Source of the DNA: an uncultured Chitinophagaceae bacterium
GTDB lineage: Bacteria; Bacteroidota; Bacteroidia; Chitinophagales; Chitinophagaceae
DNA length: 64,000 nt
Assembly: GCA_937981995.1 (NCBI GenBank)
Contig: CALJNC010000029.1
Location: forward strand, 1-64,000
Direction: 5' to 3'
Below the pieces are notes generated by a model. That model was given only the letters and a program-made list of their open reading frames with translations. It searched no databases and was not told where the DNA came from. Shown here piece after piece: positions 1 to 34,536 of this stretch. Position numbers and translations under genes: made by a program. Numbering within the stretch: position 1 is the stretch's first letter; each line of letters starts with the position of its first letter.

Positions 1-124
1 AATGCAGGAGCGTAATTCGAATTACATACAATTGTGTATTCAAAACAATGTTGACATAATTCCTACGTTAATTAAGTATCAGAAACCCAATGAACATAAG
101 TATTTGGTATTAACCATGTAGCTT

Positions 125-152
125 ATTTCCTATAATTAATAATATGATTATG
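125..152 (+). other. left attachment site, hybrid dif-like
   Basis: Left arm ATTTCCTATAA (125-135), spacer TTAATA (136-141), right arm ATATGATTATG (142-152). The left arm and spacer match the intact dif at 4656-4683, while the right arm departs from the canonical TTATG-type arm. This is expected if the left half is chromosomal and the right half came from the element's own attP. The last codons of a 39-aa element gene overlap this right arm. Confidence 0.65.
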
Positions 153-267
153 CAAGTAATGATACTAAAGCACATACACCAAGAGCAAGCATTCCCATTG
201 CTATTTTGAATAGGAAATTTTTTAGTTTTTCTTTAGTTGTTCTGTGCTTAAAATAGTACTCGTACAT
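148..267 (-). CDS. 39-aa membrane peptide ending at the attachment site
   Basis: A minus-strand reading frame from ATG (265-267) to TAA (148-150) encodes 39 residues. A basic N-terminal stretch (residues 7-17, rich in Lys/Arg) is followed by one hydrophobic segment (residues about 18-39, ending in VSLLA). The shape is that of a small single-pass membrane protein, as found among phage holin-like and coat-type peptides. A TAnnTTTG-type -7 box (TATGTTTG, minus strand, 299-292) lies just upstream, immediately after the terminator of the preceding gene. Its stop codon lies inside the element-derived arm of the left attachment site, so the reading frame belongs to the element. No family was recognised; coding status is inferred from position, promoter and composition. 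Confidence 0.45.
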   Translation of the reverse strand: MYEYYFKHRTTKEKLKNFLFKIAMGMLALGVCALVSLLA

Positions 268-291
268 AACTGATAGAACTTGTAAACGATA

Positions 292-322
292 CAAACATAA
301 AAAAAACTCTCGGAATTTCCAA
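292..322 (-). promoter_or_regulatory. candidate promoter for the 39-aa gene
   Basis: On the minus strand a TTG (322-320) is followed about 20 bases later by TATGTTTG (299-292), matching the Bacteroidota TTG-N19/20-TAnnTTTG layout. It overlaps the terminator hairpin 295-327, so termination and initiation are packed together. Confidence 0.4.
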
Positions 323-327
323 GAGTT
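295..327 (-). terminator. rho-independent terminator of the integrase transcript
   Basis: On the minus strand AACTCT (327-322) pairs with AGAGTT (310-305), with an inner GG/CC pairing, followed by an uninterrupted T-run (306-299). It lies downstream of the recombinase gene that ends at 485. Confidence 0.7.
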
Positions 328-484
328 GATTTTGTTTTCAAGTTTTCAGTCGTTGCCGTCTGAGTTGCACCTCTGCATTGCTCTTTGTTCTCCCGACAGC
401 ACAAATATAAAATAATTATTATAAAATATCCAAATAATAGTTATTCAATTAGGGTAGGTTTTTTTTCGAATTGAAAACTTTGGG

Positions 485-1003
485 TTAGCGTTCTCTTTTA
501 TCTTCGGGAACTTCCATAAATATAGGAGCATTGATATAGTATTCTGTTGTAGTTACTTTTTTATGACCAATATGTATCATTAAGTCGTCAGCGGACATAC
601 CCTCTTGTGCTAAACGCTTGATATAATTATACCTAAATGCATGACAAACAGAATGATTTTTATTTCCGTTGAATATTAATTTAGGAAATTCTTTTCTCAT
701 ATCGTGCCGGAGCATGTCATAAGTAAAGTAAAAGTCATTAGTATTATTTATGTATTTATTTAGTAGATTTTCGGGAATTAGTTCAATATTTATTTCTCTA
801 GTTTTGTTCCACTTTAAAGTTTCAAGATATATATATTCTCCACGTTTGTAAGTCCAACGTTCGGGTAATAATGCTTCACTTATTCTTATACCAGTATTAT
901 AAGCTAGTTGAAAAATATCATTTCTTTCTTGCCATTGTTGGTTCAATCTACCTAAAAAATCTTTACATAAATTATTGAGTTGTTCCAGGTCTATTTCTTG
1001 CAT
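485..1003 (-). CDS. catalytic-domain-only tyrosine recombinase (integrase)
   Basis: This 172-aa protein has the catalytic signature of tyrosine recombinases: Arg40 in TGIRISE, a Lys near residue 64-67 (TLKWNK), HAFR at 121-124, His147 in HIGHKK and a nucleophile Tyr156 nine residues later (TTTEYYIN), the spacing seen in XerC/XerD. Typical Xer or phage integrases are about 300-400 aa with an N-terminal SAM-like core-binding domain; here only about 20 residues precede the catalytic fold, so that domain is absent. The ATG at 1003 overlaps the end of the upstream gene (972-1226) by 32 bases. Because the element sits between dif-like repeats, this enzyme probably acts on dif, alone or with host XerC/XerD; that is inference. 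It is not obviously broken, since all catalytic residues are present. Confidence 0.85.
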   Translation of the reverse strand: MQEIDLEQLNNLCKDFLGRLNQQWQERNDIFQLAYNTGIRISEALLPERWTYKRGEYIYLETLKWNKTREINIELIPENLLNKYINNTNDFYFTYDMLRHDMRKEFPKLIFNGNKNHSVCHAFRYNYIKRLAQEGMSADDLMIHIGHKKVTTTEYYINAPIFMEVPEDKRER

Positions 1004-1226
1004 TTTGCTTAGCTTGTTTTTTTTCTCTGCGTTCTATTCTTCTTGCTCTCATTTCCTCTCGTAAGTCGTTTAAGAAAGGTATTAGTACACCCGTTAATAC
1101 TGGAATAATTATTTTAAGTATCAAATCAGTTTCTGGATTGTTTGTTATAGTAGTCTCTGCTATTGACGACCCTACACCTATACTTGTACCCGCACCTAAT
1201 AATATTGTTGTTGCTGTTGTTCTCAT
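972..1226 (-). CDS. small membrane protein, element-encoded
   Basis: The 84-aa product begins with a Thr/Gly/Ala-rich stretch, then a hydrophobic segment (residues about 35-53, LILKIIIPVLTGVLIPFL), then a strongly basic, Arg/Lys/Gln-rich tail (residues 55-84). One membrane span plus a charged cytoplasmic tail resembles phage holins or small structural membrane proteins, but no family was recognised. It is translationally linked to the recombinase downstream (32-base overlap) and follows the terminator after the DUF6266 gene. A holin role alongside the GH108 endolysin is possible but unproven. Confidence 0.6.
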   Translation of the reverse strand: MRTTATTILLGAGTSIGVGSSIAETTITNNPETDLILKIIIPVLTGVLIPFLNDLREEMRARRIERREKKQAKQNARNRPGTTQ

Positions 1227-1265
1227 TACTTTATTTATTTAGTTAGTATTATATATATTTATTTT

Positions 1266-1301
1266 AAAAAAAAAGGAGCGGAGCGGTGAGGCTCTACTCC
1301 T
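1266..1301 (-). terminator. rho-independent terminator after DUF6266 gene
   Basis: On the minus strand AGGAG (1301-1297) and GAGC (1294-1291) pair with GCTC (1284-1281) and CTCCT (1278-1274), followed by a run of T (1274-1266). It separates the DUF6266 gene from the small membrane protein and recombinase genes. Confidence 0.75.
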
Positions 1302-1329
1302 AATTTTTAATAGTGAAAAATCCTAATTC

Positions 1330-1956
1330 CTAGAACGATTGACTAGTAGATACGTCAGTACCAGTTGCTTTTTTGAAGAAGAAATAAACAACAACGTCAG
1401 AAGCATTGGCACCAATCAATTGAGGAAAGTTTTCGATAGTAGCAGTAGAATTTCTAGTATCTACATTACTAACTGAACCACCTATACCAGTATTGATATC
1501 ATAAGCACCTATACATAACTGGTCGTCAGCAAATGCATTAACACCATTTGTATTATCTGCCCATACTATTTCTACGTCTCCAGTTATAGGATCAAAACTT
1601 GTAGTTGAAGTAGTAACAGGAGCAAGAGAACCCTCTGCAACATTTACTAGTAAATATTCTGTTTTGGTAAGAGAAGTAAATGCACTAAGCTTATCTAATG
1701 CTTTTCGTACCGCTACGTTAGAAGTAGTGATTTTAGTAGCTTGAGCTTTAAACCCAATACGAATAATAAGCAATAGGGCAGAGAACATTCCTACCATTTG
1801 CTTAAACTTACTACGATTTTGTTGCTGTACTGGCGTGTTAGCGTCATTATAGCCACTAGGACGTCTTTTTACAACATTCTTGTCTTTCCACTTGCTGAAC
1901 ACTAGATTATCTACTTTCTGCTTGATTTGCCCTAAAGGCGATTGAATTAAACCCAT
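1330..1956 (-). CDS. DUF6266 family protein
   Basis: The 208-aa protein matches what I know of DUF6266, a Bacteroidota-restricted family of unknown function. The N-terminus (residues 2-33) has the Gly-containing start, a VDNLVFSKWK-type segment and an RRPSG motif, followed by a Gln/Arg-rich stretch (VQQQNRSKFKQ) and a hydrophobic region around residues 57-69. The C-terminal half is rich in Thr/Ser/Asn/Val and looks like beta-structure. There is no signal peptide. It is flanked by a terminator downstream and the GC-rich hairpin region upstream. In this element it is the only protein with the size and beta-rich composition expected of a virion structural protein, but no experimental function is known to me; that role is a hypothesis. 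Confidence 0.75.
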   Translation of the reverse strand: MGLIQSPLGQIKQKVDNLVFSKWKDKNVVKRRPSGYNDANTPVQQQNRSKFKQMVGMFSALLLIIRIGFKAQATKITTSNVAVRKALDKLSAFTSLTKTEYLLVNVAEGSLAPVTTSTTSFDPITGDVEIVWADNTNGVNAFADDQLCIGAYDINTGIGGSVSNVDTRNSTATIENFPQLIGANASDVVVYFFFKKATGTDVSTSQSF

Positions 1957-2193
1957 TTTTAAATATAATTTTTATGATTAGATACCAAAGTTAATGACAA
2001 AATGACATATTAACCAAATTATACTAATACTAATATGACACAATGACATACTATAGAATGTATACTGGTTATGTAGTTGGACTGTAGGGGTTGTATCTAC
2101 GGCCATAGAGCGTTCATACTTTCGGGTCTCCGCAAAGGTCTTCAATAGGGCTTTAACTGGTAAAAATCAGGTGTCGAATTTTCAAGAAATAAA

Positions 2194-2222
2194 TCAGAGG
2201 TCAAAAAGTCAGAGGTCAAAAA
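2194..2222 (+). repeat. tandem 15-bp direct repeat (iteron-like)
   Basis: TCAGAGGTCAAAAA occurs at 2194-2207 and again at 2209-2222, a 15-bp period, followed by a degenerate third unit (TCAAGGTCGG from 2223). Short tandem repeats beside hairpins are common at replication origins, so this may be a Rep-binding site; that is inference. Confidence 0.5.
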
Positions 2223-2249
2223 TCAAGGTCGGAATAATCAGAGTTAAGC

Positions 2250-2600
2250 TGTGCGAGACTGGTTTTCGGGCTTGCCCGAAGACCAGCGAGTGCATGCCCG
2301 CGGCAGGCGCATAGGTTTGAGTTCGGGTCGAGGGCGTTTCAAGATACAGAGCTAGGAAACTAACTAGGCTAGGGCAACACAGAAATGGCGGCAACCGCTG
2401 TGGGGAGGCGAAAGGGCTTTGCCCCGCCGACACACAGCGGTAGGCAGTACCGCCAACCGCCCCGAGGGTGCGAGGCTCGTCCCGAAGGGCGAGTCTCGTC
2501 ACCCGCAGGGATGCGGGAATAGAGGCGGGCGGATAGATACGATATTTTTTTCAGGCTTGAGCGTAGCGCCTGAAAAAATAGCGTAGCTATAACCGACCGA
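2250..2600. other. GC-rich hairpin-packed non-coding region (origin, packaging signal or structured RNA)
   Basis: Within an AT-rich element this block is strikingly GC-rich (41 of 60 bases in 2401-2460 and 42 of 60 in 2461-2520 by hand count). It contains successive inverted repeats: CTGGTTTTCGGG and CCCGAAGACCAG around a CTTG loop (about 2258-2285); ACCGCTGTG (2394-2402) with CACAGCGGT (2433-2441), enclosed by GGCGG (2387-2391) and CCGCC (2450-2454); a GAGGCTCG.CCC stem (2472-2497) with G-T wobbles; CCCGCA/TGCGGG (2502-2517); and an 11-bp stem (2546-2556 with 2568-2578) flanked by T and A runs. The 1957-2684 gap holds no convincing gene: open frames across it are unusual in composition and mirror the hairpins. 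Wobble pairs hint at an RNA; position between rep and DUF6266 fits an origin or packaging signal. Confidence 0.55.
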
Positions 2601-2684
2601 CTGCCCGTAGGGCGCCATATAATACAACACACGAGCTAGTACACTTTGCTGTTTAGATAATGTTAATCTTTGAGGTTTATTAAA

Positions 2685-3722
2685 CTATTCAATTAATATT
2701 TCTTCGAATATATTAGGGTGTTTTCGGGCTACCCAAGATTCTAAATTTCTGCTTTCAATGAATTTTTTTAGATTAGCTTTTGATTCGATTGCTCCAAAGA
2801 AATCACTACCTCTTAATTCTTGATTATACTGGTACATTTTTTTAATGAAGATTTTATCACTCCTAGTACTTTCTTTTTTATCTGATATTTTTAGAATAGT
2901 ATGCGATTTGCTAGAGGTGTTTAATAGTCTTACTGGTTTCATTCTATCCTTTCTACTCTTGCCGTCATTCTTTACAAATTGGAAATATTTATCTATTAAT
3001 GCGCAATATAGGGAGTTAAGTATTTCATGATTGATTACCTCTAAAGAATTTAAATTTATCAATTCACCAGTTTCGAGATTTACGAGGGTGTTTTTGTTTG
3101 CCTTTAGACTAAATTCTAATCTCCAAATATCTTCGGACTTATCAAGTTTTTGTTCTATCCATTTTTCATTAATCCACGGCTTATACTTTACATTTTCCAT
3201 TTCTTTTGTTTTGTTGTATAAGTAGTAGTTTATATCAGATAATTTAGAACCAAATGCTAGGTAGGTTGGGGTGGTTTTAGTTCCTTGCTTACCTCTGATA
3301 TTGAAGTTTACTTTTTCTCTTTTTAAGTATTCACTATTGAAGAAACGATTAATAAAATTTTCGGGTTTTATGCGAAGGTCAAAACGATTGAAATCATTAG
3401 CAATGTCTATCCTAGAAATACCTTGAAATTCTAATTGTAATGCTTCTAAAATTTGTTCTACTATTAATGAAATATCACTATCATAAAGTAAATTATTTTC
3501 AATTTTTAATAGTGCTAGACGTTCATGTAAGGCAGTAGATTGTGGTTCACTTGCTATAGTAGCTACCTTATTATTTCCTTGGTATATTTCATGTATAGAT
3601 TTAAAGTTTCTAGTTGAATATTCTAGTTTATCTATATCTAAAAAATCACTTTCTATACTATCGATAGGAAGGGTAGTATAAGTACGCAGTTGTAACCAGT
3701 CTAAAGAGGCGTCAATATTCAA
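2685..3722 (-). CDS. rolling-circle-type replication initiator (phage/plasmid Rep)
   Basis: The 345-aa protein carries the pattern of rolling-circle initiators of the Rep_trans and gene II/X type: RIDIANDFNRFD (104-115), a region reading TYLAFGSK then INYYLYNKTKEM (164-175, with the candidate nucleophile tyrosines) and WRLEFSL (200-206). The start is TTG at 3722; an in-frame stop lies six codons upstream and no ATG is available. It would nick a double-strand origin to start single-strand synthesis of the element. A hairpin precedes it (3751-3789) and the GC-rich hairpin region follows it, both candidates for its target. No HUH motif is evident, so assignment to the exact superfamily needs a profile search. 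Confidence 0.75.
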   Translation of the reverse strand: MNIDASLDWLQLRTYTTLPIDSIESDFLDIDKLEYSTRNFKSIHEIYQGNNKVATIASEPQSTALHERLALLKIENNLLYDSDISLIVEQILEALQLEFQGISRIDIANDFNRFDLRIKPENFINRFFNSEYLKREKVNFNIRGKQGTKTTPTYLAFGSKLSDINYYLYNKTKEMENVKYKPWINEKWIEQKLDKSEDIWRLEFSLKANKNTLVNLETGELINLNSLEVINHEILNSLYCALIDKYFQFVKNDGKSRKDRMKPVRLLNTSSKSHTILKISDKKESTRSDKIFIKKMYQYNQELRGSDFFGAIESKANLKKFIESRNLESWVARKHPNIFEEILIE

Positions 3723-3750
3723 TTCTGTAGCGTTTTTCTATGAAAAAGCT

Positions 3751-3789
3751 TGTCAAATTAACTGGCGTATCACTTAACGCCAGTTGACA
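3751..3789. other. perfect hairpin between endolysin and rep genes
   Basis: AACTGGCGT (3760-3768) and ACGCCAGTT (3777-3785) form a 9-bp perfect stem with an 8-base loop (ATCACTTA), extended by TGTC (3751-3754) pairing with GACA (3786-3789) across a bulge. On the minus strand the downstream side reaches a T-run only about 10 bases later, so it is either a weak terminator for the endolysin gene or a Rep recognition/nick site just upstream of rep. Confidence 0.55.
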
Positions 3790-3799
3790 AAGATTTTCT

Positions 3800-4339
3800 T
3801 TAATTTCCTATTCTGAATATTGCTTTACTTCGATTCAACCAACCCTTAAGAAACTTTCTTAGTCTTGAATTTCTTCTAGCTAAATTATAGTAGAATGAAT
3901 TTCTTTTTTTATACAAACAATGTTCTGTAAGGTTAGGAAGTTTACTAGTAGTAATTATACCAAATATGCCGTCAGGATAAGCACCTATACAAGATTGTAA
4001 TATTTTTACTCCACGCTTCACACCAGTATTAAATACTATATCAAAGTACTTTAGTTTACAATTATTTTTTACAAGGTTTACTTTGGCGGGTAGGTAGTAT
4101 TGGGTGAATGCTAAAAAACATGCTTCTTGGTATGTCATTGCTTTAAAGTCAGCAAGATTATAAAAGTGTCTGAAATTATTATTGTAGCTGATACCATACT
4201 TAGTCCAGCCACCGCTATCACCTTTGACTTTATGTAGTTTTTTGCCACCCTCCCAAAGTAGAGTGTGCTTAAATATATCAGTTTGAAAGTAAGAGAATTC
4301 AAGTTTTAATTCACAAGGAATATTAATTTTTGTTTTCAT
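3800..4339 (-). CDS. GH108-type lysozyme (phage endolysin)
   Basis: The 179-aa protein matches glycoside hydrolase family 108 followed by a short peptidoglycan-binding region. Residues 29-51 hold the family signature: catalytic Glu30 in the EGG motif, then DSGGWTKYGIS (41-51). The C-terminal part has the usual Asn-Thr-Gly motif (FNTGVKRG) and an LQ..GAYPDGIFG segment typical of the PG-binding module. GH108 enzymes cleave the glycan backbone of peptidoglycan and serve as phage endolysins. No signal peptide is seen, so release would need a holin or lysis protein; the small membrane proteins in the element are candidates. It is the second gene of the leftward transcription unit after the 69-aa protein. 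Its length is near the family norm. Confidence 0.85.
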   Translation of the reverse strand: MKTKINIPCELKLEFSYFQTDIFKHTLLWEGGKKLHKVKGDSGGWTKYGISYNNNFRHFYNLADFKAMTYQEACFLAFTQYYLPAKVNLVKNNCKLKYFDIVFNTGVKRGVKILQSCIGAYPDGIFGIITTSKLPNLTEHCLYKKRNSFYYNLARRNSRLRKFLKGWLNRSKAIFRIGN

Positions 4340-4359
4340 TAGAATAATAGAATTTTAGG

Positions 4360-4569
4360 TTAATAAATTTTGTTGATACGATTGTAGAGATTGTCCAGTA
4401 CTTTATCTAGTGCTTGTAATTCTAGTTTGTACTTTCTTCTTTTCCTTATGTATAGACTTTTGGTAATGTAATTTTGAACGTATAGGTTTTCGTTACGCTC
4501 TTGGTCTGATACAATTTTTAAACGATAGTCTTTTAATCGCTTGGGTAGGGCTTCTAGTTTTGTTGCCAT
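4360..4569 (-). CDS. small basic coiled-coil protein, element-encoded
   Basis: The 69-aa product is rich in Lys, Arg, Leu and Tyr (for example YIRKRRKYKLELQ, residues 41-53) with heptad-like Leu/Ile spacing in the C-terminal half, suggesting an alpha-helical DNA- or protein-binding peptide. It has no membrane span or signal peptide. It is the first gene of the leftward set, about 80 bases from the right attachment site and 20 bases upstream of the endolysin gene. No family was recognised; a regulatory, recombination-directionality or virion-associated role would fit its position, but nothing in the sequence decides between them. Confidence 0.55.
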   Translation of the reverse strand: MATKLEALPKRLKDYRLKIVSDQERNENLYVQNYITKSLYIRKRRKYKLELQALDKVLDNLYNRINKIY

Positions 4570-4641
4570 TTGTTAAATATTTAGGTTCACATTTAATTAA
4601 TGTTTACTAAATTCTCACGTTATTGTAAATCAATGAATTGT

Positions 4642-4667
4642 ATTATAGGATTAACTTTTCCTATAAT
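4642..4667. repeat. inverted repeat overlapping the dif arm
   Basis: ATTATAGG (4642-4649) is the reverse complement of CCTATAAT (4660-4667), the inner part of the left dif arm and first spacer base. The spacer is 10 bases. The extra half lies on the element side only and has no counterpart at the left junction, so it belongs to the element's attP. Confidence 0.55.
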
Positions 4668-4683
4668 TAATATTATGTTCAAT
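4656..4683 (+). other. dif site (XerC/XerD recombination site), right element junction
   Basis: Left arm TTTTCCTATAA (4656-4666), 6-base spacer TTAATA (4667-4672), right arm TTATGTTCAAT (4673-4683). The 11-6-11 layout and the arms closely follow known bacterial dif sites, for example the TTCCTA core of the Bacillus left arm and the TTATGT start of the right arm shared by E. coli and Bacillus. dif resolves chromosome dimers at the replication terminus, so this part of the window should be near the terminus. The left arm is probably element-derived and the right arm chromosomal, restoring a working dif after integration. Confidence 0.75.
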
Positions 4684-4760: not shown

Positions 4761-5510
4761 ATGAAAAATATTCTTTCCATTATACTCATTACGGGTTTAC
4801 TAATTACTGGAACCAATGAGCTTTCAGCGCAAAGAAATATGGGTTATCACGCCTATTCTTATGACGGTGGATTTAGAGTTCCTAATAATTTAAAAAGTTA
4901 TGCTCGAAATAAAGCTAGTAATAAAAACAACGCTCGTGTTATAAGTTTCCGTCAAACGAGACCGACAAAATCAGCTAATAAGCGCTACGCTCTAGAAAAA
5001 ACAATTAATAAGAAGCCTTCACATGATAAAAAACCTAGCTGTGGCAAGGCTGCTTCATGTAGCAGTAAATCAAAAAAGCCTTGTTGTAAAAACAATACTA
5101 GTTGTCAAAAAAGATCTTGTAAAGCAAAGTCTAATTGTTCGGGGCAAAATAAATGTTGCAACAGCAGTAAGAAACATAATCCATGGGACTATTCAGATCA
5201 TTCTGACCTTAGAGATGTGCCCAATTTAGGCAGGAAAGGTCACTCTAGAGCAAATTCAAGAAACGCCTGCTCTACCGGTAAATCTTCTTGCTCAAGTAAG
5301 TCTTTTAGTAATGGAGCTAAAAAAGCATGTTGCAAAGACAAAGCAAGCTGCGCTAAAAAAGCATGTGCAAAAGCAAAAACTGCTTGTAAGCCAGGTTGTA
5401 AAAAAGCTTGTTGTAGTGTACGCGCTAAAGATGTGCAGAAATGTCCTAAAGGTTGTACAAAAGCTTGTTGTAAAAAGCGGCCAAACAAAAGCCGTTATAA
5501 TAGATACTAA
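4761..5510 (+). CDS. secreted Cys/Lys-rich protein, metallothionein-like composition
   Basis: The 249-aa protein has a Sec signal peptide (residues 1-23, ending ELSA before Gln). Residues 90-249 are dominated by Lys, Ser, Ala and about 23 cysteines, in repeated patterns such as KKACCK, KPCCK, CKKACC and CTKACCKK. Residues about 136-165 form a Cys-free insert (HNPWDYSDHSDLRD). The composition recalls metallothioneins or disulfide-linked surface matrix proteins, but the export signal argues against a cytosolic metal buffer. It is the first gene right of the dif site and its stop overlaps the start of the CPBP protease by one base, so the two are probably co-transcribed. No family was recognised; metal binding is inference from composition. 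Confidence 0.7.
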   Translation: MKNILSIILITGLLITGTNELSAQRNMGYHAYSYDGGFRVPNNLKSYARNKASNKNNARVISFRQTRPTKSANKRYALEKTINKKPSHDKKPSCGKAASCSSKSKKPCCKNNTSCQKRSCKAKSNCSGQNKCCNSSKKHNPWDYSDHSDLRDVPNLGRKGHSRANSRNACSTGKSSCSSKSFSNGAKKACCKDKASCAKKACAKAKTACKPGCKKACCSVRAKDVQKCPKGCTKACCKKRPNKSRYNRY

Positions 5511-6710: not shown

Positions 6711-8661
6711 TTTGTCTTTTTCTTAATGCTTCTCTACTTTTAGGTCTTAGCTCGCTTTTCCATTTAAAGCCAGTCAAGAATTTATCTTTTGCTTTTATTT
6801 TATCCATTGGATAAAAAGTGCCTTTGGGTTTATTGTAAAAAACAATTCTTTGAATTTCTTTTTCTTTAAAAAGAATTTTAATTCTAGCCCCTTCTGCCCT
6901 ATTCAATCCAATAAACTCTTTTGCCTCGTTTGACGCATAATAAATACTTTCTGCATTGCCCATTACCAAGGCATTTTGGATCTCATTTTTATCAAATAAT
7001 GCATCAATATTCTTTCCCTTTATTTGATTGTACATTTTAGGGTAACCCGTATCGTCTACAATATAAGAATTGTTTCTTAATTCTGTTTTCCGAACATTGC
7101 CATTAGCCATAAAAATATTTATGGTATCCCCTTCTGCTTGCTGGTTGTTGCTCCATACCACCGGTTTTTTGAATAAATTAAAAAGAGAATCAGACTGTTT
7201 GTATATCATGCTATCGCATACTGCTTGCATGCTATCACCATAAATTTGTACTCTATTATCACAAATGATGAGTTTCTTATCTTCTAAAGTCTCTGGTTGC
7301 CCTTGATGCAATAAAGTATAGGTTGATTTACCCTTTCTAATAAAACGTTTCTGTAAGTTGCTTGTATCAATCTGACGAAGCGAAATCATCGTATCTGAAA
7401 TAATTAGTATGGTATCATTATCAGTAATTGTTGTAAGAATTGGATTTTCAGTTGCCAATAAAAAATCATTTAACTCATTAAACTCCACTTGTCCTGCCGT
7501 AAGTTCAATATTTTCAGTTGTATCTACATACTTAACTTTTCCCTTGGCTTTAACATATCCTGTATTTTTATTATAATCGGTGGCATCGGCATATAATACA
7601 GTGTTTTCATTTTGATCAATTATAATTACGTTTCCTTTTGCACTTCCTGTTCCCTTCTCTTTATTGTATCGAGTGGAGTTGGCGTATAAAATAGTATTAT
7701 CAGTTTCATTAATAATAGTCACTCGGCCCTTGGCACTGCCGCCTCCACTCTTTTTATTATAATTTGCTACATTGGCATAGAGCGTTGTGTTTTCATTTTT
7801 ATCAAAAATTACTACTTTACCACTTGCCTTACCCGATCCTGTTTTTTGATTATAAATTAATCTGTTGGCGGTAATGATTTGATCATCATTATTTATAGTT
7901 GTACGACTTGTAAAATTTGCTTTACCACTTTTTTGATTATAAGTACCACCGCTTGTTTCTATCATGGCATCGTTTCCATATACCGTGCTTTCATCTAAGA
8001 AAACAATTTTTTTACTATTCGTGTTATATGTAAGTTCTTTAGATTCTATATCACTATCAGGGTTTGTAATAAATACATTCCCTTTAAAGTATGATTGCTT
8101 TGACCTTCCATTATATTTTCCATAATCACTACTTATGGTTGTACCATCAGATACTAATTGACCACCATTTTTATAAATGCCAATTTTACTTCTGAGATTA
8201 TAACTAAGGTCATCAGTAATTAGGTTGCTTCCATTATCATAAACCTGCACATTTTCTTTCATAAATGCTTGGGCAGTATTCCCTATATATTCAACATAGT
8301 TTGCCTTGGCAGAAGTATTACTACCGCGCAATATTTTTACATTTCCATATGCTTTAATCCTATTACTTATTTGATCCAAAAAAGCACTGTCACAAGTCAT
8401 AGTTATATCGCCACTTTGCACGCGTACATTACCTATCAATTTATTTATATAATGATCGTCTTGGGTTTTAATTGCTTTTAAATCATCTGCATGTACAACT
8501 TGTATTTCAGTTGTATTTGCCTTAGTAGAATCTGAAATTATTTGTTGTGTATTATTTAATGAGTCTATTTGAGCATTCGTATCCATACTAAAAAATGCTA
8601 CTGATACAATCAGAAGCATTCCTTTCAATACATTATAGGTATACTTTTTACTTATCAGCAT
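6688..8661 (-). CDS. OstA/LptA-like LPS transport protein with 31-aa repeats
   Basis: The 657-aa protein has an N-terminal signal peptide (to about residue 30) followed by OstA/LptA-type beta-jelly-roll repeats (for example LIGNVRVQSGDITMTCDSAFLD, split here over residues 75-96). LptA-type proteins form the periplasmic bridge that carries LPS from the inner membrane to LptD. Four consecutive units begin at Tyr270, Tyr301, Tyr332 and Tyr363 with an exact 31-residue period and the pattern YNxKxGxGxAKGxVxI...NENTxLYA, lengthening the bridge. The C-terminal region is less conserved. It overlaps the MCE gene upstream by 14 bases and follows amidase and MCE genes, a familiar Bacteroidota envelope order; a divergent LptD-like gene lies beyond. 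Confidence 0.85.
   Translation of the reverse strand: MLISKKYTYNVLKGMLLIVSVAFFSMDTNAQIDSLNNTQQIISDSTKANTTEIQVVHADDLKAIKTQDDHYINKLIGNVRVQSGDITMTCDSAFLDQISNRIKAYGNVKILRGSNTSAKANYVEYIGNTAQAFMKENVQVYDNGSNLITDDLSYNLRSKIGIYKNGGQLVSDGTTISSDYGKYNGRSKQSYFKGNVFITNPDSDIESKELTYNTNSKKIVFLDESTVYGNDAMIETSGGTYNQKSGKANFTSRTTINNDDQIITANRLIYNQKTGSGKASGKVVIFDKNENTTLYANVANYNKKSGGGSAKGRVTIINETDNTILYANSTRYNKEKGTGSAKGNVIIIDQNENTVLYADATDYNKNTGYVKAKGKVKYVDTTENIELTAGQVEFNELNDFLLATENPILTTITDNDTILIISDTMISLRQIDTSNLQKRFIRKGKSTYTLLHQGQPETLEDKKLIICDNRVQIYGDSMQAVCDSMIYKQSDSLFNLFKKPVVWSNNQQAEGDTINIFMANGNVRKTELRNNSYIVDDTGYPKMYNQIKGKNIDALFDKNEIQNALVMGNAESIYYASNEAKEFIGLNRAEGARIKILFKEKEIQRIVFYNKPKGTFYPMDKIKAKDKFLTGFKWKSELRPKSREALRKRQNEQLRTK
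7576..7854 (-). repeat. three exact-period 93-bp coding repeats in the OstA-like gene
   Basis: Protein residues 270-300, 301-331 and 332-362 repeat with a 31-aa period (93 bases), and a fourth partial unit starts at residue 363. Conserved positions are the initial Tyr-Asn, the Ala-Lys-Gly (first copy Ala-Ser-Gly), and Asn-Thr-x-Leu-Tyr-Ala. Confidence 0.7.
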
Positions 8662-9679
8662 TAGGTGCTTTTATAGGAGGCGATGCTTTTTTCTTACCTC
8701 CAAAAAGATTTAGATTGACGTAACGATAGGGTCTGGCACTTAAATCATACAGAAGGTTATTCATAGTCTCGCTTGTATTCTTTAGGTTTTTGTACAGCTT
8801 ATCATCGTTCATGAGTAAAGCCATGCTGCCCTTGCCCGAATTTACTTTGCCTAGTGTAGCTTGCAATGAACCTAATGTTGTGTTTAATTTAGTTACGGTT
8901 TGCTCCAATTTTATTTTACTAAAATTTTGGCTTGTAGTTTCTAAATTAGAAAGCGTACGATTAATCGTACCGTTGTTTTTATTTAAGTTATTCGTAAAGC
9001 CGCTTAAGCTCTGGGATGCACCACTTAAGTTGGAGCTTATTCCGTTTAAGCTGTTCATAGCATTATTAATATTTCCTTTTTGTTTACCTAATGTGTTTGC
9101 TAGGTCATTAAACTGCGTCATTGTTTTATCTAATGAACTAATAGAATGTTTAAGGTTGCGTTGCGTAGCTGGGTTTAAGATATTTTTAATCCCATTTACG
9201 GCTGTATCAAGGGAAGCTAATGTGCCTTTTATTTCAGCAATCATAGGGTCAATTTCATTTCCTACCTTATCCATTAATCCAACTTGTACATCTCCTGCAA
9301 TTGTTCCTGATCCGTCTAAAAATTCTTTTGAATTTCCTATGTCTAACCTAACCGCCTTAGTACCTAATAAACCGTCAGATATAATGGAAGCTTTTGAATT
9401 TACCGGGATATTAATATTTTTATCAATAGCCATTTCCACTGTAATGCCTTTTGCAATATCTCCATCTGTAACGTACATATTACTTACTGAACCTACATCA
9501 AAACCATTTAAGGTAATTCTATTTGCAGGTTTTAAGCCACCTACTTCTTTATATATGGCCGTTACTGTGCGCTTACTCGCCCACATACCTTTTCCTTTAA
9601 GGTAGTTATACCCTAGTATAAAAATTGTAATAGCTACAATTCCTAAAATTCCAATTCTAACCTCGTTTGGTATTTTCAT
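8648..9679 (-). CDS. MlaD/MCE family lipid transport protein
   Basis: The 343-aa protein has one N-terminal membrane anchor (residues about 8-24, IGILGIVAITIFILGYN) and a single MCE domain (about 38-115, including VGGLKPANRITLNGFDVGSV). The C-terminal half is a long Asn/Ser/Leu-rich helical region with heptads, as in MlaD-type proteins that form hexameric rings and lipid tunnels. Together with an ATPase and a permease (not in this window) such proteins move phospholipids between membranes. It ends overlapping the OstA-like gene by 14 bases and starts 12 bases after the amidase gene, so the three form one leftward operon for envelope biogenesis. Confidence 0.88.
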   Translation of the reverse strand: MKIPNEVRIGILGIVAITIFILGYNYLKGKGMWASKRTVTAIYKEVGGLKPANRITLNGFDVGSVSNMYVTDGDIAKGITVEMAIDKNINIPVNSKASIISDGLLGTKAVRLDIGNSKEFLDGSGTIAGDVQVGLMDKVGNEIDPMIAEIKGTLASLDTAVNGIKNILNPATQRNLKHSISSLDKTMTQFNDLANTLGKQKGNINNAMNSLNGISSNLSGASQSLSGFTNNLNKNNGTINRTLSNLETTSQNFSKIKLEQTVTKLNTTLGSLQATLGKVNSGKGSMALLMNDDKLYKNLKNTSETMNNLLYDLSARPYRYVNLNLFGGKKKASPPIKAPNADK

Positions 9680-18859: not shown

Positions 18860-19453
18860 ATGAAAAACTTTTTTGTTCTATTTCTTGTTTGCATTGTTGC
18901 ATTTTCTTCTTGTAGAGAAGAATCCTACTTGCCCAAACCAAGAGGTTATTATAAAATAGAATTTCCCAAAAAAGAGTATACGCAATTCGAAAAGAAGGGG
19001 TATCCTTATCAATTTGAATTTCCTGCTTATGCTACTATTGAAAAAGACAGCTTATTTTTTGATAAAAAAACAGAAAATCCTTGGTGGATTAATATTGATT
19101 TTAAATCCCTAGGCGGTAAAGTATTCATAAGTTACAAGCAAATAACCGGAAGTGCAAGCTTAACCAAAATGCTAGAAGATTCATATCAACTGAGCTATTA
19201 TCACACCAAAAAAGCGGATTACATTGATGACCCTGTTTTTCATACTGATAATAATGTACATGGAGTATATTATAATGTTGGAGGAAATTCAGCATCAGCA
19301 TTTCAGTTTTATGCAACTGATTCTGTAAAACATTTTTTACGTGGGGCATTGTATTTCGATGTATCTCCTAATGCAGATAGTTTAAAACCAGTAAGTGAAT
19401 TTTTAAAGGACGACATTCAACGAATGGTTGAATCTATAAAATGGACGCGATGA
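18860..19453 (+). CDS. gldD: gliding motility lipoprotein GldD
   Basis: The 197-aa lipoprotein has a signal peptide with lipobox Cys19 (FSSC) and the GldD signature YLPKPRGYYKIEFPKKEY soon after it. GldD is required for gliding motility and for the T9SS in Flavobacterium and relatives; its exact biochemical role is not settled. The ATG follows the upstream T9SS substrate gene by one base, and its stop overlaps the next gene (DUF3109) in an ATGA arrangement, so the three may be co-transcribed. Length matches the family. Presence of gldD fits the many T9SS cargo proteins in the window. Confidence 0.92.
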   Translation: MKNFFVLFLVCIVAFSSCREESYLPKPRGYYKIEFPKKEYTQFEKKGYPYQFEFPAYATIEKDSLFFDKKTENPWWINIDFKSLGGKVFISYKQITGSASLTKMLEDSYQLSYYHTKKADYIDDPVFHTDNNVHGVYYNVGGNSASAFQFYATDSVKHFLRGALYFDVSPNADSLKPVSEFLKDDIQRMVESIKWTR

Positions 19454-33639: not shown

Positions 33640-34536
33640 CTATGACTTTGGATGCGCTTTCTTGTGTACATTTTTAAGTTTTTCAATCCCATTGTGCGTA
33701 TAAATCTGAGTGGCAGCTAAACTAGCATGGCCCAATAATTCTTTGATAGCATTAATATCAGCACCTTCATTTAAAAGGTGTGTGGCAAAAGTATGACGTA
33801 GCACGTGCGGGCTTTTTTTGTTTAGGGTTGTACTACTTTGCAATATTTTTTTTACCTCGTTGTAAATATATTTTGGGTACAAAGGTTTGCCATTGGGTAA
33901 AACGAGTAATTTATCATTTCCGTCAATTACTACTTCGTTACGTTTTACTAAGTAATATTTTATAAGTTTAACCAATTCGGTACTAATGGGAATGAGGCGC
34001 TCCTTATTTCCTTTACCTATTACTCTTAGTTCTTTGCTTTCTATATCAGTTCGATTACATGTTAGGTTAAGTAACTCGCTACGACGCATTCCTGTTTGGT
34101 ACAATATCTCAATGATTAGCTGCGGGTTTAATTCCGCTATAGTTTCTGCCTGCTTGTCCTCTGATGCTGTTTCTAATACCTCTTCAATTTTATCTTCTCT
34201 AATAAAAGTAGCCAATCGTTTTTCTACTTTAGGCTTAATGATATTAAGCATAGGCGAAACCTCAATTTGATTTAAACGGTGCATATGTTTAAAGAATGAG
34301 CTTAATGATGACATTTTTCTATGAATACTTTTAGGAGATACGCCTTTCTCTCTTAAGTCTGCAATCCATGACCTAATATGGGTTCGTTTAATTTTTTGAA
34401 TCAATAGCGCATCATATTCGGCCACCATATAATCTCTAAACTGCTCCAAATCCTTTTTATATGCAGTTACTGTATTAGGAGAATACCGCTTTTCAAAACG
34501 GAGATAATCAATAAATTTTGATTGGAGATCTTTCAT
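33640..34536 (-). CDS. xerC: XerC/XerD-type tyrosine recombinase
   Basis: The 298-aa protein has the N-terminal SAM-like core-binding domain (about 5-90) and a catalytic domain with TGMRRSE (catalytic Arg), GKGNKERLIP (Lys), HVLRHTFATHLL (HxxR), LGHASLAATQIYTH (His and nucleophile Tyr). Length and motifs match chromosomal Xer recombinases that resolve dimers at dif. It follows rpsU, an arrangement I know from other Bacteroidota and usually labelled XerC, though XerC and XerD cannot be separated with confidence here. It is a candidate host partner for the dif site at 4656. Confidence 0.9.
   Translation of the reverse strand: MKDLQSKFIDYLRFEKRYSPNTVTAYKKDLEQFRDYMVAEYDALLIQKIKRTHIRSWIADLREKGVSPKSIHRKMSSLSSFFKHMHRLNQIEVSPMLNIIKPKVEKRLATFIREDKIEEVLETASEDKQAETIAELNPQLIIEILYQTGMRRSELLNLTCNRTDIESKELRVIGKGNKERLIPISTELVKLIKYYLVKRNEVVIDGNDKLLVLPNGKPLYPKYIYNEVKKILQSSTTLNKKSPHVLRHTFATHLLNEGADINAIKELLGHASLAATQIYTHNGIEKLKNVHKKAHPKS

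What the first reader, a model, noticed from the sequence alone, without database searches (positions are those of the whole stretch)
126..4683. A ~4.5-kb phage-like element integrated at a dif site and carrying its own mini-integrase
The endolysin, Rep, DUF6266 and recombinase genes lie between direct repeats that match the Xer dif site. The reconstructed chromosomal dif would be the left arm at 125-135, the shared spacer, and the right arm at 4673-4683; the reconstructed element site would be the left arm at 4656-4666 plus the altered arm at 142-152. Known dif-integrating elements (filamentous phage CTXphi, IMEX) borrow host XerC/XerD; this one also encodes a recombinase. No capsid family was recognised, so it could be an undescribed kind of temperate ssDNA phage or satellite in Bacteroidota.
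Basis: partly seen in the sequence, partly recalled or inferred. Interest (0 to 1): 0.85.

Follow-up and report, generated by a model that had tools for sequence, protein, structure and literature searches.

The report
Tiny phage-like element at bacterial dif site
A 4.5-kb virus-like DNA element sits in the spot where this bacterium separates its replicated chromosomes; it has its own replication, lysis and cut-down recombinase genes but no recognisable shell protein, so it is probably a very small phage or a parasite of other phages that use the same spot.

Summary
The two repeats (125-152, 4656-4683) are the two best matches in the 64-kb window to a dif profile built from relatives. The right one is the only dif in the genome. 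All genes between them are intact and on one strand. The left chromosomal flank is contig C77, which ends exactly at the last base of the dif spacer. In relatives, homologues of C77 genes and of a right-flank gene lie next to dif.

The Rep is a distant relative (28%) of that of the Obscuriviridae ssDNA phages; an isolate, Omtje_1, carries a dif-mimic of the same class. Larger phages occupy dif in related genomes. This element lacks every Obscuriviridae structural gene. It carries a GH108 endolysin, a DUF6266 protein (FN3-like C-terminus), a catalytic-domain-only Xer-like recombinase and a 69-aa gene shared with an unrelated dif prophage in a congener. Similar mini-recombinase, DUF6266 and Rep genes sit on a 3.3-kb circle elsewhere.

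Best reading: an Xer-exploiting, rolling-circle phage-like element of VGJphi-type att geometry, more likely a satellite (TLCphi-like) than an autonomous minimal phage. The packaging route is inferred. New variant of a known kind.

The parts
125..152 (+). attL: chromosomal XerC arm (125-135), spacer TTAATA (136-141), element's degenerate XerD-side arm (142-152)
   Evidence: dif profile 17.6 bits, second best site in the window; contig C77 ends exactly at 141
4656..4683 (+). attR: element XerC arm (4656-4666), spacer (4667-4672), chromosomal XerD arm (4673-4683); canonical dif
   Evidence: 41.6 bits, best in the window; only dif in the genome
142..4672 (.). the element between crossover points, 4531 bp
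1..141 (+). left chromosomal flank, identical to the last 141 bp of contig C77 (29,255 bp), whose last gene is a bshC homologue
148..267 (-). 39-aa single-TM peptide from its ATG (48 aa if the TTG start at 294 is used); stop codon lies inside attL
   Evidence: ORF only
485..1003 (-). mini tyrosine recombinase, 172 aa, catalytic domain only, R-K-H-R-H-Y all present, no core-binding domain
   Evidence: PF00589 3.8e-12; NCBIfam XerA/XerC weak hits; alignment with host XerC and XerD
972..1226 (-). 84-aa membrane protein with basic tail, overlaps the recombinase gene; holin or virion membrane protein candidate
   Evidence: sequence, no family match
1330..1956 (-). DUF6266 protein, 208 aa: conserved N-terminal domain plus FN3-like C-terminal domain; candidate surface or attachment protein
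   Evidence: PF19781 1.8e-17; AlphaFold2 models and fold searches
2150..2640 (.). GC-rich (54% against 30-33%) structured noncoding region with an 11-bp-arm hairpin at 2546-2578; origin and/or packaging signal candidate
   Evidence: fold z-score -5.1; GC-rich noncoding tracts also in L095 and L097
2685..3722 (-). rolling-circle replication initiator, 345 aa, TTG start
   Evidence: PHROG 20614 1.4e-13; Obscuriviridae Rep 28% id, 2e-10; pRGI00433 3e-18
3800..4339 (-). endolysin, 179 aa, GH108 plus PG_binding_3
   Evidence: 51-54% identical to Cellulophaga tailed-phage endolysins
4360..4569 (-). 69-aa protein of the first, dif-proximal gene; 43% identical to the dif-proximal gene of an unrelated 12.9-kb dif prophage in congener G001
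33640..34536 (-). host XerC-like recombinase, 298 aa (XerD is on contig C26): the machinery that would act on the att sites
   Evidence: TIGR02224 5e-87

Best explanation
A 4531-bp, autonomously replicating, phage-derived element that lodges at the chromosome's dif site and depends on a helper phage for its capsid: a satellite that works like TLCphi but with a Bacteroidota Rep. Shown by sequence: dif insertion with attL = host XerC arm + spacer + degenerate XerD arm and attR = canonical dif; an intact gene set of Rep, GH108 endolysin, membrane proteins, DUF6266, mini-recombinase and a 69-aa dif-proximal gene; no recognisable capsid protein or packaging ATPase. Inferred: the circle integrates as dsDNA by a XerC-led strand exchange of host XerC/XerD, because its attP keeps the XerC arm and spacer and has lost the XerD arm. 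The two att sites can recombine again for excision. Rep then nicks at the GC-rich hairpin region and replicates the circle by rolling circle. Endolysin and membrane proteins lyse the cell. DUF6266 is added to, or redirects, particles built by a phage of the Obscuriviridae/FLiP-like group or another dif-dwelling phage. The mini-recombinase most likely assists excision or multimer resolution together with host Xer. The 69-aa protein is a candidate Xer or replication accessory factor.
For: Insertion. The assembly breaks exactly at the crossover, C77 end = window 141, with k=141 overlaps at four other contig ends. Flanking genes are dif neighbours in relatives. Rep. Endolysin. Recombinase. Against a self-made capsid: only the Rep clusters with the Obscuriviridae gene set, no capsid family in Pfam or PHROGs, and an FN3-like DUF6266 C-terminus. 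Possible helpers: dif-integrated larger prophages in relatives, namely G001 12.9 kb with the homologous 69-aa gene, G021 9.6 kb and G372 6.7 kb Obscuriviridae-like. Omtje_1 carries an attP of the same class. TLCphi, a dif-integrating satellite without virion genes, is described in PMC4246890.
Against: No helper was identified in this genome: the one protein tried, the G001 prophage ATPase, gave no match, which shows little. Related small circles (L083, L097, L029) also lack a recognised capsid, which could equally mean that DUF6266 or another small protein builds an undescribed particle. An own endolysin is unusual for a satellite riding on a lytic helper. No capsid match by sequence does not exclude a divergent capsid.
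Confidence: 0.45

Rival explanations
1. An autonomous minimal phage. DUF6266 and the small membrane proteins form the virion, Rep copies an ssDNA genome, the endolysin releases it, and the mini-recombinase together with host Xer integrates it at dif.
For: DUF6266 plus Rep recurs on free or nearly free small DNAs: L083 (3449-bp contig with 127-bp identical ends, so a 3.3-kb circle) with mini-recombinase, DUF6266 and a REP_ORF2-G2P Rep; L097 pRGI00433, a 4190-bp circle with Rep, M15 endolysin and a DUF6266-like protein; L029, a 4663-bp contig; L095 from human faeces with Rep, DUF6266-like, TM protein and endolysin. An own lysis gene.
Against: The DUF6266 C-terminus models as FN3-like, and its N-terminus has low confidence. 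DUF6266 is also an orphan chromosomal gene in many Bacteroidota. My IMG/VR scans found no relatives, but these scans need exact 8-residue matches.
Confidence: 0.3
2. A degenerate prophage: the remnant of a 6-10 kb Obscuriviridae-like prophage at dif that has lost its structural genes by deletion.
For: The Rep is Obscuriviridae-like, and a complete Obscuriviridae-like prophage sits at dif in G372.
Against: All ORFs are intact and compactly arranged on one strand, with both att sites. DUF6266 and the mini-recombinase are absent from those phages and recur together on an independent 3.3-kb circle.
Confidence: 0.12
3. An integrative small plasmid that uses Rep for replication and Xer for integration. 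The endolysin and DUF6266 are accessory surface or competition genes, and spread is by transformation, vesicles or conjugation in trans.
For: Relatives are annotated as a plasmid (L097), and some DUF6266 units carry no Rep.
Against: Endolysin plus TM proteins in one operon with Rep is a phage signature. The nearest annotated Reps in the phage collection are those of isolated Obscuriviridae phages.
Confidence: 0.1

Closest known systems
TLCphi (Vibrio cholerae dif-integrating satellite; PMC4246890)
   Same: Sits at dif, has an autonomous replication module and lacks virion genes; 28-bp dif-like attP
   Different: TLCphi relies on host Xer and its first exchange is by XerD. Here the att geometry points to XerC, and an endolysin, DUF6266 and a mini-recombinase are encoded. 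No sequence comparison was made; Gammaproteobacteria against Bacteroidota.
VGJphi-class IMEX (PMC4246890)
   Same: Single dif-like attP with a functional XerC side and a mismatched XerD side; attL and attR remain recombination-competent
   Different: VGJphi is a complete 7.5-kb filamentous phage without its own recombinase
Obscuriviridae (Cellulophaga phages phi12:2, phi12a:1, phi18:4, Omtje)
   Same: Homologous Rep (28%); Omtje_1 carries a dif-mimic of the same class at 1121-1148 (-)
   Different: 6.4-6.6 kb with about ten structural genes and a glucosaminidase endolysin; none of the structural genes is here
PhiCjT23-like (FLiP-related) prophages of Flavobacterium (PMC9719478)
   Same: Bacteroidota, circular genome, dif-flanked prophage, Rep near the start
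   Different: 6.0-8.4 kb with a major capsid protein after the Rep; the paper attributes integration to host XerC/XerD
pRGI00433 (HG796319.1), rat-gut 4190-bp circle
   Same: Homologous Rep (E 3e-18), an endolysin, a protein with the DUF6266 N-terminal domain, and a GC-rich noncoding tract
   Different: M15 peptidase instead of GH108, longer DUF6266-like protein, no recombinase, no dif-like site found
G378:C174 (L083), 3.3-kb circle
   Same: Mini catalytic-domain-only recombinase, DUF6266 and a Rep
   Different: Rep is of the REP_ORF2-G2P (HUH) type, unrelated in sequence; no endolysin; no dif-like site above shuffles

Membership tests
IMEX (integrative mobile elements exploiting Xer) | Integrated at the chromosomal dif with a dif mimic as attP | tested here: met
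IMEX (integrative mobile elements exploiting Xer) | Integration catalysed by host Xer recombinases | not testable with these tools
   Host XerC and XerD are present; the element also encodes a mini-recombinase
Obscuriviridae | Replication initiation factor of the family | tested here: met
   28% identity, E 2e-10; alignment
Obscuriviridae | Structural gene set including the 241-aa structural protein | tested here: not met
   Only the Rep clusters with Omtje_1 and phi18:4 proteins
PhiCjT23/FLiP-like phages | Major capsid protein gene following the Rep | tested here: not met
   No such gene in 142-4672; remaining ORFs assigned or under 90 aa
TLCphi-like satellite | Replication module present, virion genes absent, located at dif | tested here: met
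   absence only to the limit of family searches
TLCphi-like satellite | Packaged by a helper phage | not testable with these tools
   No reads or particles; the one helper protein tried was not found in the genome
DUF6266 (PF19781) | Score above the curated cut-off | tested here: met
   63.9 bits against 23.4
Tyrosine recombinase (PF00589) | Catalytic R-K-H-R-H-Y residues | tested here: met
   alignment with host XerC and XerD
Tyrosine recombinase (PF00589) | N-terminal core-binding (SAM-like) domain | tested here: not met
   172 aa against about 300; alignment starts at the catalytic domain; frame has no further room upstream (182 aa open frame)

The most novel reading that the evidence does not exclude
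A widespread, unrecognised group of very small (3.3-4.7 kb) phage-like elements of Bacteroidota is defined by the DUF6266 N-terminal domain, an exchangeable Rep and a catalytic-domain-only recombinase. They dwell at dif beside larger phages, share dif-proximal genes with them, and make particles with DUF6266 as the virion protein or redirect other phages' particles.
Probability: 0.35. Interest if true: 0.8.

Novelty: new variant of a known kind. Interest (0 to 1): 0.6.

Why it matters
If right, it extends the dif-parasite way of life, known best from Vibrio filamentous phages and their satellites, to a minimal element of Bacteroidota. It gives DUF6266, a widespread family without a function, a testable role. 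It also adds a possible case of a dif-dwelling element that brings a stripped-down recombinase of its own, and suggests that dif in this group is a shared dock where small elements and larger phages exchange genes.

Tried and rejected
Close relatives of Rep, DUF6266, mini-recombinase or sibling Reps in IMG/VR: none; these scans need exact 8-residue matches, so this is weak. Rep in named genomes: none. Rep family in 395 genomes of the class: only this genome and two larger prophages. Rfam: no hit in the noncoding region (the U4 match is chance). 69-aa gene in 398 genomes of the order: only here (the congener was not in that sample). Homology of the 69-aa gene or the 84-aa TM protein to G021 prophage genes: not supported. 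dif-like sites on the L083, L029 and L097 circles: not above shuffles. An empty site by synteny in congeners G001 and G002: dif neighbours differ. DUF6266 as a recognised capsid fold: fold searches return FN3 domains covering only the C-terminal half; the N-terminal half was not tested alone. The idea that the contig break at 141 proves an empty site: rejected as proof, because C29 is not broken at the right junction, where an empty-site path should rejoin; it shows only that the graph branches there.
Full report
OBSERVATION. The repeats 126-146 and 4657-4677 match 20/21. In 41 related genomes the pattern TATAATTAATATTATGTTMAAT (up to 2 mismatches) is found in 29, once per genome in 27 of them, with almost nothing for the reversed control; in this genome the single hit is 4662-4683 and the congener G001 has the identical 22-mer. 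A 28-column profile from 25 relatives scores 4656-4683 at 41.6 bits and 125-152 at 17.6 bits; the next best site in 64 kb is 11.4. In 125-152 the XerC arm is intact (14.9 bits) and the XerD arm is not (-7.3). So attL is host XerC arm + spacer + element arm, attR is element XerC arm + spacer + host XerD arm, and the element proper is 142-4672 (4531 bp).

FLANKS. The window begins at the first base of contig C29. Its first 141 bases are identical to the last 141 of contig C77. Exact 141-bp overlaps also occur at four other contig ends of this assembly, so they are the overlap length of the assembly graph. Base 141 is the last base of the dif spacer, so the graph appears to branch exactly at the Xer crossover. 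This identifies C77 as the left flank and suggests that reads continue differently after the spacer in part of the population. It does not prove the empty site, since C29 runs unbroken through the right junction. The last gene of C77 is a bshC homologue; its homologue in G013 lies directly beside an unoccupied dif. A second C77 gene and the window gene 8648-9679 have homologues beside dif in G019 and G052.

GENES. All lie on the minus strand. 4360-4569: 69 aa, no family. 3800-4339: endolysin (GH108, PG_binding_3), 51-54% identical to endolysins of Cellulophaga tailed phages. 2685-3722: Rep (PHROG 20614), 28% identical to Obscuriviridae Reps, closer by E-value to an unannotated Rep on the rat-gut circle pRGI00433. 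1330-1956: DUF6266. 972-1226: membrane protein with a basic tail. 485-1003: tyrosine recombinase reduced to its catalytic domain, with R, K, H, R, H and Y aligned to host XerC and XerD; it is not either host protein. 148-267: a 39-aa TM peptide ending inside attL. Between DUF6266 and Rep lies a GC-rich (54%) noncoding tract whose strand folds far better than shuffles (z -5.1). GC-rich noncoding tracts also occur in L097 and L095, so an origin or packaging signal is a reasonable inference.

RELATIVES. The constellation recurs. L083 (G378:C174) has 127-bp identical ends, so it is a 3.3-kb circle with a 153-aa mini-recombinase, DUF6266 and a G2P-type Rep. L029 (same bacterial family as the window) is a 4663-bp contig with DUF6266 and a G2P-type Rep. 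L097 (4190-bp circle) and L095 (human faeces) carry the same type of Rep as the window, an M15 endolysin and a protein sharing the DUF6266 N-terminal domain (hhalign E 8e-9 and 2e-7). Two unrelated Rep types with one DUF6266 family point to DUF6266 as the constant part. DUF6266 is also common as an isolated chromosomal gene (26 of 395 genomes of the phylum; contexts) and is nearly identical across genera in a mobile 2.2-3.9 kb unit of marine Flavobacteriia. AlphaFold2 gives a confident C-terminal domain, about residues 110-213, which matches fibronectin type III domains (Z up to 8.6, rmsd 2.1, 93 residues). A Z near 8 is a common level for such folds, so this is FN3-like, not proof of function.

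OTHER dif DWELLERS. In G001 a 12.9-kb prophage lies between a degenerate site at C131:6476 and the canonical dif at 19378; it encodes a VapE-like protein, a P-loop ATPase with a marginal Zot match and an M15 endolysin. Its dif-proximal gene is 43% identical to the window's 69-aa gene, although the elements are otherwise unrelated. G021 has a 9.6-kb prophage with the same att geometry and a Phage_CRI Rep. G372 has a 6.7-kb Obscuriviridae-like prophage whose attP keeps the XerD arm instead. The isolate Omtje_1 carries TTGTCCTATAATTTATATTAT, identical over 21 bases to the family dif consensus, followed by a degenerate XerD arm: an attP of the same class as the window's.

MECHANISM. Shown: location, geometry, gene set. 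From established knowledge (PMC4246890): a dif-like attP with a matching XerC side and a mismatched XerD side (VGJphi) integrates as dsDNA by XerC catalysis and can excise; TLCphi is a dif satellite with replication but no virion genes. Inferred: XerC-led integration and excision here, rolling-circle replication from the structured region, lysis by the endolysin, and particle supply by a helper. The role of the mini-recombinase is open. It lacks the core-binding domain, so acting alone on a 28-bp site seems less likely than acting with host Xer; this is inference. The 69-aa protein, shared by two otherwise unrelated elements at the same place, may be an Xer-activating factor like XafT (mentioned in PMC9765430) or a replication factor; no similarity to XafT was tested.

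VERDICT. A real, intact, dif-integrated element; insertion at dif about 0.95 likely, rolling-circle replication about 0.85, satellite rather than autonomous phage about 0.45 to 0.3. It is not a member of the Obscuriviridae or the PhiCjT23 group, as it lacks their structural genes. It is a new variant of the dif-exploiting phage/satellite kind.

Noticed in passing
L163 3000-6843 (uncultured Tenacibaculum NZ_CANNBW010000002.1); also L164, L165, L180-L182: A DUF6266 + DUF6943 + small TM gene unit of 2.2-3.9 kb is 89-95% identical in DNA between genera and even orders (Balneicella, Mangrovimonas, Tenacibaculum). It carries two inverted dif-like sites 43 bp apart, like the CTXphi attP hairpin, and a variable cargo slot.
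   Followed up: partly
L163 7827-12008: An integron-like cassette array: seven ~130-bp repeats (CAACGTTTTGTG...GTTG) separated by single small genes, directly beside the DUF6266 unit.
   Followed up: no
L243 3935-13582 (G021): A 9.6-kb prophage at dif with a Phage_CRI-type Rep, a 310-aa candidate capsid protein and many small membrane proteins, in a complete genome of the same family.
   Followed up: partly
L136 6476 to L134 10406 (G001:C131 6476-19405): A 12.9-kb prophage at dif with VapE-like protein, DNA methyltransferase, P-loop ATPase with a marginal Zot match, and M15 endolysin; no capsid family recognised.
   Followed up: partly
L006 5104-5193 (phage phi18:4): Two oppositely oriented dif-like sites about 60 bp apart in an intergenic region, at about the shuffle maximum (16.3 and 15.2 against 15.2); a possible CTXphi-like fold-back att site.
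   Followed up: no
L087, L088, L089: A second protein family (242-268 aa) with a DUF6266-like N-terminus lies near DUF6266 genes together with small membrane proteins of 83, 98 and 142 aa.
   Followed up: no
window 4761-5510: Secreted 249-aa protein extremely rich in Cys and Lys (CCK repeats), the first gene on the right side of dif.
   Followed up: no
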